A DNA stretch of 5,421 nt, from contig JAJAZO010000276.1 in the NCBI GenBank assembly GCA_026785745.1, positions 1 to 5,421 on the forward strand, in the 5' to 3' direction. This DNA is from Chitinophagaceae bacterium. Lineage in GTDB: Bacteria; Bacteroidota; Bacteroidia; Chitinophagales; Chitinophagaceae. Both the position numbers and the translations under genes were made by a program. A model generated the notes under the pieces. It was not told the origin of the DNA. It did no database searches and worked only from the letters and a program-made list of their open reading frames with translations. This document shows positions 1 to 4,228 of the stretch, one piece after another (the first letter of the stretch is position 1; each line of letters starts with the position of its first letter).

Positions 1-204
1 GCTCTCAGCCTATTGTTTTATCTTTTGCCGACAACCAACCAATATGCAATCAACATCAAACCCATTCAAAAACCCTGTTACCGCTATAATATAAACGGGG
101 CTTGTTTTATATGGGATTTTTTCCTGGCCGGTAACAAATTTAGAAATAGTCCCATTGAGCCTGGCACCAACGGGGCTTTCGTAATTTCAAAAGCTTTTAT
201 ATAG
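1..204 (+). other. Left-edge region without a supported gene
   Basis: No confident gene is seen here. One plus-strand frame is open from the window edge to a TAG at 202-204 (67 codons). Its product is rich in Ile, Asn, Phe and Tyr, as expected of AT-rich non-coding DNA, and has no motif I recognise. A second frame, entering at position 3, ends with TAA at 87-89 and gives a 28-residue tail. An AT-rich hairpin follows it (arms 89-96 and 104-112) and then six T at 117-122, so it could be the end of a gene lying to the left. The two readings cannot both be right and neither is strong. From 205 to 289 there is only the hairpin listed separately and an A/T-rich leader for the next gene. Confidence 0.2.
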
Positions 205-1157: not shown

Positions 1158-1874
1158 TCAACGTTTCAAAAATTTACCTTTTAGCAATTTGTCCATCACC
1201 TCATCTTTTTGATTGCGGCTGATAGGGATATGCTGCTGACCGATAAGTATATCATTTCCTTCAATCGTATCAATCTTTGAAGCAGCCACGATATATGACT
1301 TGTGTACTTTGAGAAACTTATCAGCCGGCAAATAATCTTCTACTGATTTAAAAGTAAGGTAGGTCATATACTTCTTTGCCGGCGTATGAATGGTTACATA
1401 ATTCTGTAGCGCTTCTACATACAACACTTCATCAAATAATATTTTGACCAGTTTATTATCGGCTTTAATAAAAAAATATTCTGTAGCGTCTGCTTCTTTA
1501 CTATTTGTGTTCCTTACTTCATAATACTCTTTTGCTTTTAGTACGGCTTTAAAAAAACGGTCAAAAGAAACAGGCTTTACGAGATAGTCAAGAGCATTTA
1601 CTTCAAACCCTTCCAGTGCATATTGCGGATAAGCAGTCGTAAAGATTACAGGTGGCGGATTCTGCAATGTTTTAAAAAATTCAAGCCCGGTTATTTTCGG
1701 CATCTGAATATCGAGAAAAAATAATTGTACTTCGCCCCTGCAAATCATCCCGGCAGCTTTCAACGGATTATCAAATTCACCAACAAGATTCAAAAAATCC
1801 ACATCGGCAATATACTCCTTCAGGCCTTTTCTTGCCAGCGGCTCATCATCAATAATAATGCAGTTGATATTCAT
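1158..1874 (-). CDS. LytTR-family response regulator
   Basis: This 238-residue transcription factor is the output half of a two-component system. The N-terminal receiver domain (about 1-120) has the acidic pair Asp9-Asp10 in IIIDDEP, the phosphoacceptor Asp55 in FLDIQMP, the switch Thr80 in FTTAYPQYA, and Lys100-Pro101 in YLVKP. The C-terminal LytTR DNA-binding domain (about 132-235) is marked by VLYVEALQNYV, FLKVHKSYIVA and HIPISRNQKDEV. Length and layout match the LytR/AlgR/AgrA type; all the expected receiver residues are present. Its ATG overlaps the stop of the upstream kinase gene as ATGA, so the two are translationally coupled and almost certainly partners. LytTR proteins bind two direct 9-bp repeats 21 bp apart, and such a pair occurs upstream of the kinase gene at 2917-2946. 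The ligand or signal cannot be read from the sequence. Confidence 0.96.
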   Translation of the reverse strand: MNINCIIIDDEPLARKGLKEYIADVDFLNLVGEFDNPLKAAGMICRGEVQLFFLDIQMPKITGLEFFKTLQNPPPVIFTTAYPQYALEGFEVNALDYLVKPVSFDRFFKAVLKAKEYYEVRNTNSKEADATEYFFIKADNKLVKILFDEVLYVEALQNYVTIHTPAKKYMTYLTFKSVEDYLPADKFLKVHKSYIVAASKIDTIEGNDILIGQQHIPISRNQKDEVMDKLLKGKFLKR

Positions 1875-2893
1875 GATAATTGGAGGTTTAATTGTATTGA
1901 AAATGTTTCTTCTGCCTTATCAATTTTTAGTTCCTGTTTTCCAGGATATAAAAGTTCCAACCGTCTTTTTACATTATTCAGGCCGATGCCGCCATGCTGT
2001 TCTGTTGCTCGCTGCTCTTCCCTTGAATTAGTAACAGAAAAAATGAAACTGTTTTTCACCAGGAACATATCCACTTTTACAAAATTTGGTTTATCATTAA
2101 AATGAGAAATATGCTTGAAAGCATTTTCTACAAATGGCACCAGCAATAACGGCTCAATAGAAAACCCTTTAACATCCGGTGTACAGTTAAACTGAACAGT
2201 ATATTTTTCATCCTTTCTCAACTGCTGCAAGTCCATATAATCCTTCAGGTAATGTATTTCCTTTTCAATGGGTATCTTATCATCCTTTACCTCATACAAC
2301 TGGTAACGGAGCATTTCAGAGAATTTATGCAAAGCCCCTCTTGCTTCCTGGTTGTCTTTATGTATCAGAAAATAAACCGAATTCAATGAATTGAAAACAA
2401 AGTGAGGATTGATCTGCGATTTCAGAAAATTCAGCTCAGCTTCGGCTTTTTCTTTGGCCGTCTCTATCATCCTTTGCTGTAGTTTACCATAATCAAGCAT
2501 TAGCTTTACTGCAGCACCGGCAATAACAAGAAAAAAATGCGGGATAATATTATCATACAAACTTTTTTTCAGATTTGCCGACCAATTGATAAGTGCCGGA
2601 CTATTAATCACCCTGCCGAGTATATTCATTTTGATTATACTGCTGCAAAATATCATGGCAATAAAAATAATAGCAAACCATACGTAGTATTTTTTGTAAA
2701 GCAACCGGGGAATTAATACATAGTTGGTAATATAAATCATCAACGCCAGCTCTGCCACTTTTATAAAAGTTACTATAAAAGCTTTCCGTTGCGTTGAATA
2801 ATCATCCATCCGCAGAAAGTACCATACTCCGAACACCAGCATCCAGAAGAATACATGATGTAACTTGTATTTTAACAGTCCGCTGTTTTGCAT
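1871..2893 (-). CDS. LytS/YehU-type sensor histidine kinase
   Basis: This 340-residue inner-membrane kinase is the input half of the system. The N-terminal half carries about four hydrophobic helices (roughly 12-28, 40-62, 70-88 and 115-134) with no recognisable extracellular sensor domain, so sensing is probably within or near the membrane. A short coiled linker (about 136-157) leads to the His_kinase domain of the LytS class, with phosphoacceptor His164 in SQINPHFVFNSLN. The ATPase region has the N-box in PFVENAFKH (253-261) and the G-box GGIGLNNVKRRL (301-312). The domain order and motifs match Bacteroidota kinases that pair with LytTR regulators. The start follows an A/T-rich leader, and the first helix begins soon after Met1. 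The gene is the first of a two-gene operon and is divergent from the dioxygenase-like lipoprotein. The signal it detects is unknown. Confidence 0.96.
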   Translation of the reverse strand: MQNSGLLKYKLHHVFFWMLVFGVWYFLRMDDYSTQRKAFIVTFIKVAELALMIYITNYVLIPRLLYKKYYVWFAIIFIAMIFCSSIIKMNILGRVINSPALINWSANLKKSLYDNIIPHFFLVIAGAAVKLMLDYGKLQQRMIETAKEKAEAELNFLKSQINPHFVFNSLNSVYFLIHKDNQEARGALHKFSEMLRYQLYEVKDDKIPIEKEIHYLKDYMDLQQLRKDEKYTVQFNCTPDVKGFSIEPLLLVPFVENAFKHISHFNDKPNFVKVDMFLVKNSFIFSVTNSREEQRATEQHGGIGLNNVKRRLELLYPGKQELKIDKAEETFSIQLNLQLS

Positions 2894-2916
2894 AATTCAA
2901 AATAAAAGTACAAATA

Positions 2917-2946
2917 ACCATTGGCAAAAGACATTACACCATTGGC
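2917..2946 (+). promoter_or_regulatory. Candidate LytTR operator: two direct ACCATTGGC repeats
   Basis: Two identical 9-mers ACCATTGGC occur at 2917-2925 and 2938-2946, with a 12-bp spacer and 21 bp from start to start. AgrA, AlgR and VirR, all LytTR proteins, bind paired 9-bp direct repeats in this arrangement. The general LytTR consensus is roughly [TA][AC][CA]GTTN[AG][TG]; the 9-mer fits except at the fourth base (A for G) and the ninth. The proximal copy is 23 bp upstream of the kinase start, where binding would probably block or modulate the kinase promoter. Read on the plus strand, the pair points toward the dioxygenase-like gene, whose start is 113 bp away, a plausible upstream activator position. 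The rest of the 166-bp gap has only a weak -7-like CATCTTTG (3037-3044). CCATTGG is also odd-centred palindromic, so a different regulator is possible. Confidence 0.5.
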
Positions 2947-3059
2947 TGTCTTTTCCTGATGACTTGCTGGTTTGCCTTTCGTCAAGCTACATTCACCCCA
3001 TGTGTAAATTATTTCGGCATCACCTGAATACAAACGCATCTTTGGTGAAAGATTCTGCC

Positions 3060-3743
3060 ATGAAATCTCCATATTTTTTCTCAATAGCCCTGCTTATTTC
3101 TTTTTGCAGTTGTTCCCAGAACAATTCGCCATCACAGGTAAATAACAAGCCCTCAGCCAATGAAATAAAAGTGGGTGGAAGATGCGAAGGCTGTGAGGCT
3201 GTATATGAAAGCCCGGTTTCCTTTGACCTGTTAAACGAAGTGGACACCCTGCCTGATTTTAATGAGCCGGGGCCTAAAATTGAAATCAGCGGTACTATTT
3301 ATCACCAAGGTGGAAAAACAGCGGCAAAAGATGTGGTGCTTTACATTTATCACACCGATCAAAAAGGTTTGTATTCCAAAAAGGGAATTGATTCCGATAG
3401 CTATCGGGAAGGTTGGGCAAAGCAACACGGCTATATTCGTGGCTGGGTGAAAACAGATATCAACGGTTTTTACAAATTTTATACGTTGGTACCGGCTTCC
3501 TATCCTAACAGTAATAATACCAAACATATTCATCCCACAATTAAGGAACCCGGTAAAAGTGCTTACTGGATAGATGAGTTTGTTTTTGATGATGATCCAT
3601 TATTACCGGAAGAAGAAAGGACAAGAACAAAACCTGTTGGCGGTAGTGGAGTATTAAAAACAGTATCGAAAGATGGAATGCTAAAAACGAACCGGGATAT
3701 AATATTAGGGCTAAATGTGGCAGACTATCCTGCAGGGAAATGA
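3060..3743 (+). CDS. Intradiol ring-cleavage dioxygenase-like lipoprotein
   Basis: The 227-residue protein resembles the catalytic domain of intradiol dioxygenases (protocatechuate 3,4-dioxygenase/catechol 1,2-dioxygenase fold), which use non-haem Fe(III) to open catechol rings. I chose the ATG at 3060 because a lipoprotein signal follows at once, with a likely lipidated Cys18 in FCSCSQ. The frame is open back to 2865, but that would run through the kinase start and operator. A CEGC motif is at 42-45. The domain covers about 72-190, with GLY (Tyr105), RGWVKTDINGFYKF (127-140), ASYP (Tyr148) and HIHP (His156, His158), giving the four Tyr/Tyr/His/His iron ligands. The arginine usually three residues before the first histidine is Asn153. 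Substrate is unknown; the protein should be anchored in the envelope. It is divergent from the kinase operon and may be its target. The fold call is good; activity is uncertain. Confidence 0.87.
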   Translation: MKSPYFFSIALLISFCSCSQNNSPSQVNNKPSANEIKVGGRCEGCEAVYESPVSFDLLNEVDTLPDFNEPGPKIEISGTIYHQGGKTAAKDVVLYIYHTDQKGLYSKKGIDSDSYREGWAKQHGYIRGWVKTDINGFYKFYTLVPASYPNSNNTKHIHPTIKEPGKSAYWIDEFVFDDDPLLPEEERTRTKPVGGSGVLKTVSKDGMLKTNRDIILGLNVADYPAGK

Positions 3744-3751
3744 AACTACAG

Positions 3752-4228
3752 CTATTTGATAGCAAGGTCACCCTTTACTTTGTAGTAACTTATTGTTCTT
3801 TCTACATAATTGGCGATTAAACCATTTACTTTAATCAGCCATACTTCTTTTTCCTTATCAAATAACACTTCTACAAAGCCACTCGAAACATTGACATAAG
3901 AAACCTGGTCACCGGCATGGAAAGAGTATTTGGCTCCTATCTCACTTTTTCCATTAGGAGTTGTTGAAATCTTATATTTTGTGCTTTTTAGTTTTTTTAT
4001 CCCGAAGAATAGTGTAAACATCTGTTCTCTTTGCTCCACTACCACCGTCAAATCACCTTTTACACGATACACTTTAAGGGTGGCGGGTCTTGCTTCAATA
4101 AAAAAATTGTTGTTGGTAACTGTATCTAAAATAAAAATAGGGCAACGCTTTAATAAAGTATCCCTTTCCTCCTGCGCATAGGCAGACACGGTGAACACCA
4201 TAAATAAGGATAAGATAAAGCTTCGCAT
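3752..4228 (-). CDS. Exported protein of unknown function
   Basis: I do not recognise this 158-residue protein. It begins with a typical Sec signal peptide (MRSFILSLFMVFTVSAYA, cleavage expected after Ala18), so the mature form of about 140 residues is periplasmic or secreted. There is no lipobox, no further membrane helix and a single mature cysteine (Cys29). The mature part is rich in alternating hydrophobic and charged residues, suggesting beta structure. A similar element occurs near both ends, VYRVKGDLTV (53-62) and YYKVKGDLAI (148-157), which may mark the two edges of one domain or an old duplication. The signal peptide directly after the Met supports the start. The gene lies 60 bp downstream of yggS on the same strand, with no convincing terminator between, and could be read from the yggS promoter. 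Its stop is 8 bp from that of the converging dioxygenase-like gene. Confidence 0.82.
   Translation of the reverse strand: MRSFILSLFMVFTVSAYAQEERDTLLKRCPIFILDTVTNNNFFIEARPATLKVYRVKGDLTVVVEQREQMFTLFFGIKKLKSTKYKISTTPNGKSEIGAKYSFHAGDQVSYVNVSSGFVEVLFDKEKEVWLIKVNGLIANYVERTISYYKVKGDLAIK

What the first reader, a model, noticed from the sequence alone, without database searches (positions are those of the whole stretch)
2917..2946. LytTR-type operator between the kinase operon and a dioxygenase-like lipoprotein
Two perfect ACCATTGGC 9-mers sit 21 bp apart start to start, directly upstream of an operon encoding a LytTR regulator. Paired 9-bp direct repeats with a 12-bp spacer are the known binding geometry of AgrA, AlgR and VirR. 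A perfect 9-mer duplicate at exactly that spacing in a 166-bp gap is unlikely by chance. It predicts autoregulation and/or control of the divergent lipoprotein gene.
Basis: partly seen in the sequence, partly recalled or inferred. Interest (0 to 1): 0.75.

Follow-up and report, generated by a model that had tools for sequence, protein, structure and literature searches.

The report
Mirror-image LytTR switch for divergent genes
The gap between a bacterial two-component signalling operon and a neighbouring lipoprotein gene holds two mirror-image paired DNA repeats, kept with few exceptions across 18 genera of its family, where the operon's own regulator likely binds and is predicted to switch on both genes; the repeat first noticed overlaps only half of one of them.

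Summary
The two ACCATTGGC 9-mers are real (2917-2925, 2938-2946, step 21), but as a pair they are not the conserved operator: they match 9/9 in 1 of 51 orthologous regions (this window) and at least 7/9 in 3 of 51.

What is conserved is another direct repeat with the same 21-bp step, CnnTTCRTCAAG-N9-CnnnTGRTGTAA, present once per divergent promoter in mirror image: left (kinase) 2934-2966 (-), right (lipoprotein) 2975-3007 (+). Its core reaches 9/12 in 49 of 51 left and 46 of 47 right regions (6% of shuffles). Copy 2 of the 9-mer overlaps the promoter-proximal left half-site; copy 1 lies in the kinase promoter spacer.

Where the lipoprotein gene is not adjacent, only the left site is seen. In two genomes of one genus where the genes are unlinked, both promoters carry the site. 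Sixteen same-genus paralogous kinase operons lack it. In 9 of 10 genomes searched these two promoters are the top two hits.

Most likely: AgrA-like binding just upstream of both -33 boxes, giving positive autoregulation and co-activation. Binding and direction of control are untested.

The parts
2955..2963 (-). Left operator, distal half-site 1 (GTCATCAGG on the - strand; consensus TTCRTCAAG)
   Evidence: core 10/12 for the left site in the window; conserved in register in the left set (49 of 51 at core 9/12 or better)
2934..2942 (-). Left operator, promoter-proximal half-site 2 (ATGGTGTAA on the - strand; consensus nTGRTGTAA), 21 bp from half-site 1
2925..2928 (-). Predicted -33 element of the kinase operon (TTTG)
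   Evidence: Position 32-35 of the left profile; TTTG-like at 31 or 32 in 25 and 34 of 51
2898..2910 (-). Predicted kinase -7 region: TACTTTTA (2903-2910) and TTATTTTG (2898-2905); which one is used is unsettled
   Evidence: TAnnTTTG-like (5 of 6) at position 50 in 47/51 and at 55 in 39/51
2978..2986 (+). Right operator, distal half-site 1 (TTCGTCAAG)
   Evidence: only zero-mismatch site in the assembly; 46 of 47 right sites at core 9/12 or better
2999..3007 (+). Right operator, promoter-proximal half-site 2 (CATGTGTAA), 21 bp from half-site 1
3012..3015 (+). Predicted -33 element of the lipoprotein gene (TTTC here; TTTG-like at position 31 in 38 of 47)
3037..3044 (+). Predicted -7 element of the lipoprotein gene (CATCTTTG; TAnnTTTG-like at position 55-56 in 23 of 47)
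   Evidence: sequence
2917..2925 (+).
2938..2946 (+).
1871..2893 (-). LytS-type sensor kinase (PF06580)
1158..1874 (-). Response regulator, receiver plus LytTR DNA-binding domain; overlaps the kinase gene by 4 bp
3060..3743 (+). Dioxygenase-like lipoprotein (PF00775), predicted second target

Best explanation
The 166-bp gap carries two LytTR-type direct-repeat operators in mirror image, one just upstream of each predicted divergent core promoter, where the LytTR response regulator of the adjacent operon is predicted to bind and likely activates both its own kinase-regulator operon and the lipoprotein gene. Shown: the two sites share one motif and the 21-bp step, lie at nearly the same distance from -33/-7-like elements, are conserved while the surrounding columns mostly are not, and follow the genes when one is missing or moved. 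Inferred: (1) the regulator, probably when phosphorylated, binds each pair as a dimer, one monomer per half-site, two helical turns apart on one face of the DNA; (2) half-sites centred near -45 and -66 help RNA polymerase at the -33 box, so the effect is activation; (3) the result is a positive feedback loop plus co-induction of one lipoprotein, with few further targets. The ACCATTGGC pair comes from one true half-site plus a look-alike in the promoter spacer.
For: 51 orthologous kinase upstream regions (kinase at least 50% identical; 18 genera by the labels; 47 with the lipoprotein gene divergently adjacent) give two profiles with the same conserved positions: C(-6), TTCRTCAAG(-3..5), C(15), RTGTAA(21..26). 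The core profiles match only in register: 33.8 at shift 0, best other shift -27.5. Core 9/12 or better: left 49/51, right 46/47; shuffled gaps 6.3% of 1,880. Step 21 is the unique best step in 47/51 left and 41/47 right. TTTG-like boxes peak at position 31-32 and TAnnTTTG-like boxes occur at 55 on both sides. Left site kept, no right site where the lipoprotein is not adjacent: L082, L084, L085 and L217, L222, L224-L227, L229. Kinase and lipoprotein unlinked but both with the site in G375 and G329. Of 19 loci not used for the PWM, 14 exceed the best of 1,500 background pieces. 0 of 16 same-genus paralogous kinase operons carry it. In print: LytTR sites are repeats of 9-11 nt with 11-13-nt spacers (PMC4847170, passages), and in S. 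mutans such repeats lie 4-11 bp upstream of -35 and give positive autoregulation (PMC6193735, passages).
Against: No binding or expression data. The motif was found in the same 51 regions on which most counts rest, and sites were first located with step 21, so the step test is partly circular; only 19 loci lie outside. Exceptions: L037 (right core 8/12, half-sites apparently about 11 bp apart), L042 and L020 (left 7 and 8 of 12), L138 (kinase 57% identical, no site), and among more distant kinases L228, L230, L232, L235. Of the 14 held-out hits, four sit at 25-66 nt from the extrapolated start rather than 39-47 (L231, L233, L234, L236). Two of 73 distant Bacteroidota kinases also exceed the background maximum (L152, L160). 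Half-sites 1 and 2 differ (GTCAAG vs GTGTAA; mean 5.0-5.6 of 13 matches). In agr the promoter-proximal repeat is centred near -60 (PMC4227749, passage), further out than the -45 predicted here. Activation rather than repression rests on position only. The promoter parts of the two profiles align about equally at shift 5 and shift 0, so the kinase -7 box is unsettled.
Confidence: 0.75

Rival explanations
1. One reading: the two ACCATTGGC 9-mers are themselves the LytTR half-sites, perhaps a lineage-specific operator or a third in-phase half-site.
For: Exact repeat at step 21, rare in shuffles (11 of 20,000); in phase with the true left repeat; C at 36 in 37/51 and a purine at 42 in 46/51 on the kinase side.
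Against: 9/9 in 1 of 51; T at 43 in 9 of 51 against 50-51 of 51 in true left half-sites; no such element on the lipoprotein side; lies inside the predicted core promoter.
Confidence: 0.08
2. The two mirror-image sites are real but are bound by another regulator (another LytTR protein or an unrelated factor), with the adjacent regulator acting elsewhere.
For: No binding data. Bacteroidota genomes hold many LytS/LytTR paralogs (up to 29 kinase matches in one same-genus genome), and a few more distant kinases carry the site (L152, L160; L234, L236).
Against: Site presence follows this kinase clade even when unlinked from the lipoprotein; absent from 16 same-genus paralog operons; lipoprotein promoters in genomes without the kinase mostly lack it (27 of 28 such loci below the 99% background, the one above having a 36-38% kinase neighbour).
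Confidence: 0.12
3. The cognate regulator binds both sites but represses, giving negative autoregulation and repression of the lipoprotein.
For: Position upstream of -33 does not exclude repression; the spacer side of the kinase promoter is also conserved.
Against: The repeat ends 4-5 bp before the predicted -33 box, the arrangement of the activating repeats in S. mutans LRS (4-11 bp; PMC6193735); neither half-site overlaps the predicted -33 or -7.
Confidence: 0.1

Closest known systems
Staphylococcus aureus agr P2-P3 intergenic region (AgrA)
   Same: Divergent promoters, each with LytTR direct repeats just upstream, one driving the operon that encodes the regulator (PMC4227749, passages)
   Different: Other phylum, kinase and promoter consensus; half-site sequence differs; proximal repeat centred near -60 there, near -45 predicted here; target here is a lipoprotein gene
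LytTR Regulatory Systems (LRS, e.g. S. mutans HdrRM and BrsRM; Bacteroides LRS-like operons)
   Same: 9-bp direct repeats with 12-bp spacer a few bp upstream of the -35 of the regulator's own operon, positive feedback; the same paper lists Bacteroides LRS-like operons with 11-bp repeats 11 bp apart (PMC6193735, passages)
   Different: LRS pair a LytTR regulator with a membrane inhibitor; here a receiver-LytTR response regulator pairs with a histidine kinase, and a divergent target shares the gap
E. coli LytS/LytTR systems YpdA/YpdB and BtsS/BtsR
   Same: Same kinase-regulator class; YpdB binds a direct repeat of GGCATTTCAT (PMC4847170, passages); BtsR is the best NCBIfam match to this regulator, 140 bits, below the cut-off of 246
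   Different: Half-site sequence differs; no mirror-image pair with a divergent target known to me (recalled)
Pseudomonas aeruginosa AlgR sites (CCGTTCGTC)
   Same: Half-site 1 here, TTCGTCAAG, shares the string TTCGTC with the AlgR core (PMC4064291, passage)
   Different: AlgR sites are not necessarily direct repeats 12 bp apart (same passage); the shared string may be chance

Membership tests
LytTR-type operator | Two direct repeats of 9-11 nt with an 11-13-nt spacer | tested here: met
   9-mers with a 12-nt spacer; step 21 unique best in 47/51 left and 41/47 right (partly circular); repeat is imperfect
LytTR-type operator | Linked to a LytTR-domain regulator | tested here: met
   PF04397 in the window's regulator; a regulator homologue downstream of the kinase in 7 of 7 long loci L132-L138, of which L138 lacks the site
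LytTR-type operator | Located just upstream of -35/-33 | tested here: met
   TTTG-like box 4-5 bp after the repeat on both sides; promoter elements are predicted only
LytTR-type operator | Bound by the LytTR regulator | not testable with these tools
   Needs EMSA or footprint
agr P2-P3-like divergent pair | One repeat pair per divergent promoter | tested here: met
   Left 49/51 and right 46/47 at core 9/12 or better
agr P2-P3-like divergent pair | Both promoters activated by the regulator | not testable with these tools
   No expression data
   9/9 in 1 of 51, at least 7/9 in 3 of 51
S. mutans-type LRS | LytTR regulator paired with a membrane inhibitor, no kinase | tested here: not met
   Receiver domain and PF06580 kinase present

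The most novel reading that the evidence does not exclude
A dedicated two-promoter circuit: across much of the family this sensor kinase and LytTR regulator serve only themselves and one cell-surface dioxygenase-like lipoprotein, through a portable operator-plus-promoter module that comes and goes with the target gene, also drives other divergent genes beside paralogous kinases, and fires a leaderless kinase mRNA.
Probability: 0.3. Interest if true: 0.55.

Novelty: new member of a known kind. Interest (0 to 1): 0.42.

Why it matters
LytS-type kinases are numerous in these genomes (up to 29 matches in one same-genus genome), yet searches of the held library for LytTR with Chitinophaga, with Chitinophagaceae or with intradiol listed no paper, and LytTR with Bacteroidetes and 'binding site' listed three whose titles concern other topics. 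Predicted repeats of Bacteroides LRS-like operons are in print (PMC6193735, passage). A defined operator, with its place relative to -33/-7, makes one LytS/LytTR system of the Chitinophagaceae directly testable, names its likely target and gives a pattern for finding the sites of related systems, including targets unlinked to the kinase.

Tried and rejected
1. ACCATTGGC pair as conserved operator: rejected.

2. The mean match of the 9-mer at step 21 is 3.22 of 9, lower than at step 28 (3.96) and about that at step 22 (3.08). Judged a kinase-promoter feature.

3. The facing TTGACGAA...TTCGTCAA as one palindromic operator: rejected as the unit, because the offset between left and right sites ranges from 43 to 236 (47 in 24 of 47 loci) while each repeat keeps step 21.

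4. Inverted repeat AAAAGACA/TGTCTTTT around left half-site 2: at best 41% pairing across relatives, against 17-36% at the other 15 offsets tried; left as a remark.

5. Wider regulon: own-genome pattern with up to 3 mismatches gave 80 hits against 88 for the reversed control. A sequence-only model ranked the kinase and lipoprotein promoters first and second in 9 of 10 genomes; in the tenth (G085) the lipoprotein promoter came first, a gene beside a paralogous LytTR system second, and the kinase promoter was not listed at E 0.5. That search scored only the 150 best candidates per genome. G289, G321, G375 and G329 gave no site to the model; all four are among the nine.

6. Rows dropped: own duplicates L001 and L072, duplicates L073 and L078, and kinases under 50% identity. 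L132-L137 repeat loci already held (same tblastn identities) and were not counted as independent. Of 95 sites with core 9 or better, 44 went into the model alignment.

Full report
OBSERVATION. ACCATTGGC occurs at 2917-2925 and 2938-2946, 21 bp apart, in the 166-bp gap between a kinase-regulator operon (-) and a lipoprotein gene (+). The pair is unique in the 2.82 Mb, 73%-complete assembly. At step 21 such a pair is rare in shuffles (11 of 20,000); at any step from 10 to 44 it is less rare (475 of 20,000).

COMPARATIVE SET. A search of 394 family genomes with the lipoprotein and of 42 same-genus genomes with the kinase, plus stretches fetched, gave 51 non-duplicate upstream regions of kinases at least 50% identical. 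In 47 of them the lipoprotein is divergently adjacent. By the genus labels they come from 18 genera.

WHAT IS CONSERVED. Not the 9-mer pair: 9/9 in 1 of 51, at least 7/9 in 3 of 51. The alignment shows conserved blocks on the kinase side. Aligned on the kinase strand (51 sites) and on the lipoprotein strand (47 sites), both sides give one profile: C at -6, TTCRTCAAG at -3..5, C at 15, RTGTAA at 21..26, with low information in most spacer columns. C(-6)/C(15), T(-2)/T(19), R(0)/R(21), T(1)/T(22) and A(4)/A(25) are 21 bp apart: an imperfect direct repeat. In L017, L029 and L030 left half-site 1 reads GTGTAG, closer to half-site 2, which makes the repeat plainer. The two core profiles match only in register (33.8 at shift 0, best other -27.5). 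Core scores of 9/12 or better: 49/51 left, 46/47 right, against 6.3% of 1,880 shuffled gaps. Step 21 is the single best step in 47/51 and 41/47 (partly circular, since sites were first located with that step).

PROMOTER POSITION. The Bacteroidetes consensus is TTTG / TAnnTTTG at -33/-7, the -7 box spanning -12 to -5 (PMC6847099 and PMC9723704, passages seen). On the lipoprotein side TTTG-like boxes peak at position 31 (38/47) and TAnnTTTG-like boxes at 55 (19/47). On the kinase side they peak at 31 and 32 (25 and 34 of 51), and at 50 (47/51) and 55 (39/51). So the repeats end 4-5 bp before the predicted -33 box on both sides, with half-sites centred near -45 and -66 if the box at 55 is used. 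In the window the kinase ATG begins 4 nt after that box, so its mRNA is predicted to be leaderless, or to have about a 5-nt leader if the box at 50 is used. Leaderless mRNAs are a minority in flavobacteria (5.5% in one study).

GENE-CONTENT TESTS. L082, L084 and L085 keep the kinase without an adjacent lipoprotein. They keep the left site (core 10, 10, 11) and show no right site (best core 7, 8, 8). For L082 (G366) and L085 (G318) no lipoprotein was found in the genome; the genome of L084 was not searched for it. L081 ends with its contig. L217, L222, L224-L227 and L229 behave the same way (left PWM 14.9-33.4, right at most -0.3). Of 30 lipoprotein loci without a kinase of at least 50% identity next to them, 3 exceed the 99% background: L036 and L039 (19.5 each, identical sites, one genus, so one event at most) and L051 (13.8). 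L036 and L039 come from the only two of the 30 genomes that hold a kinase at 56-57% identity elsewhere, and those kinases carry the site too (35.6 and 22.3). L051 has a 36-38% kinase neighbour. Sixteen same-genus paralogous kinase operons score at most -0.5 (background of 1,500 pieces of 160 nt: 99% at 5.0, maximum 10.2). Of 73 distant Bacteroidota kinases 3 reach 8 (15.4, 11.0, 8.0).

HELD-OUT LOCI. Of 19 loci not used for the PWM, 14 exceed 10.2 (17, scanned over 200 nt; 2, scanned whole). The misses are L138, L228, L230, L232 and L235. Among the eight with kinase identity of 53% or more, seven have the site; L138 (57%, no lipoprotein match in its genome) does not. Eight of the 12 hits lie 39-47 nt from the extrapolated start; L231, L233, L234 and L236 lie elsewhere.

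SCOPE. The own-genome pattern search shows no excess over the reversed control (80 vs 88). A 69-position sequence model ranks the kinase and lipoprotein promoters first and second in 9 of 10 genomes, including all four that contributed no site to it (150 candidates scored per genome). This suggests a local circuit, though the own assembly is incomplete and weak sites would be missed.

MECHANISM. Direct or inverse repeats of 9-11 nt with 11-13-nt spacers are the LytTR signature (PMC4847170, passages). In S. mutans such repeats 4-11 bp upstream of -35 mediate positive autoregulation (PMC6193735, passages). In S. aureus agr, AgrA repeats lie upstream of both divergent promoters P2 and P3 (PMC4227749, passages). 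The window is built like the last two; that the adjacent regulator binds and activates is inferred. The lipoprotein has a PF00775 domain whose Tyr, Tyr, His and His align with residues that I recall as the iron ligands of protocatechuate dioxygenase (alignment); its substrate is unknown.

VERDICT.

Noticed in passing
L236 and L234, upstream of kinases 37-38% identical: More distant LytS/LytTR operons also score on both strands (L236: 21.1 and 12.6, core 11 on both; L234: 29.8 and 15.4). Their divergent genes are other proteins (337 aa, by eye like a secreted metallophosphoesterase; 186 aa, by eye secreted). The mirror design may be reused with other targets.
   Followed up: partly
L254:1470-1620 (G085): Same-type site upstream of a 314-aa gene directly after a paralogous LytS/LytTR operon.
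   Followed up: partly
window 3752-4228 (-): 158-aa protein without Pfam or NCBIfam match. By eye a similar gene follows the lipoprotein in L213, and sequence like its 3' end lies next to the kinase in L082, where the lipoprotein is missing.
   Followed up: no
window 2926-2933 and 2947-2954: Perfect 8-bp inverted repeat AAAAGACA / TGTCTTTT around left half-site 2; some relatives show GGTAAAA / TTTTACC there (e.g. L003, L005), but pairing is weak overall.
   Followed up: partly
L037 (G201) gap: Right half-sites look only about 11 bp apart, one helical turn less: a possible natural spacing variant.
   Followed up: no
L133 and L135, downstream of kinase: The regulator homologue starts about 0.9 and 1.0 kb after the kinase match ends, so something lies between the two genes.
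   Followed up: no
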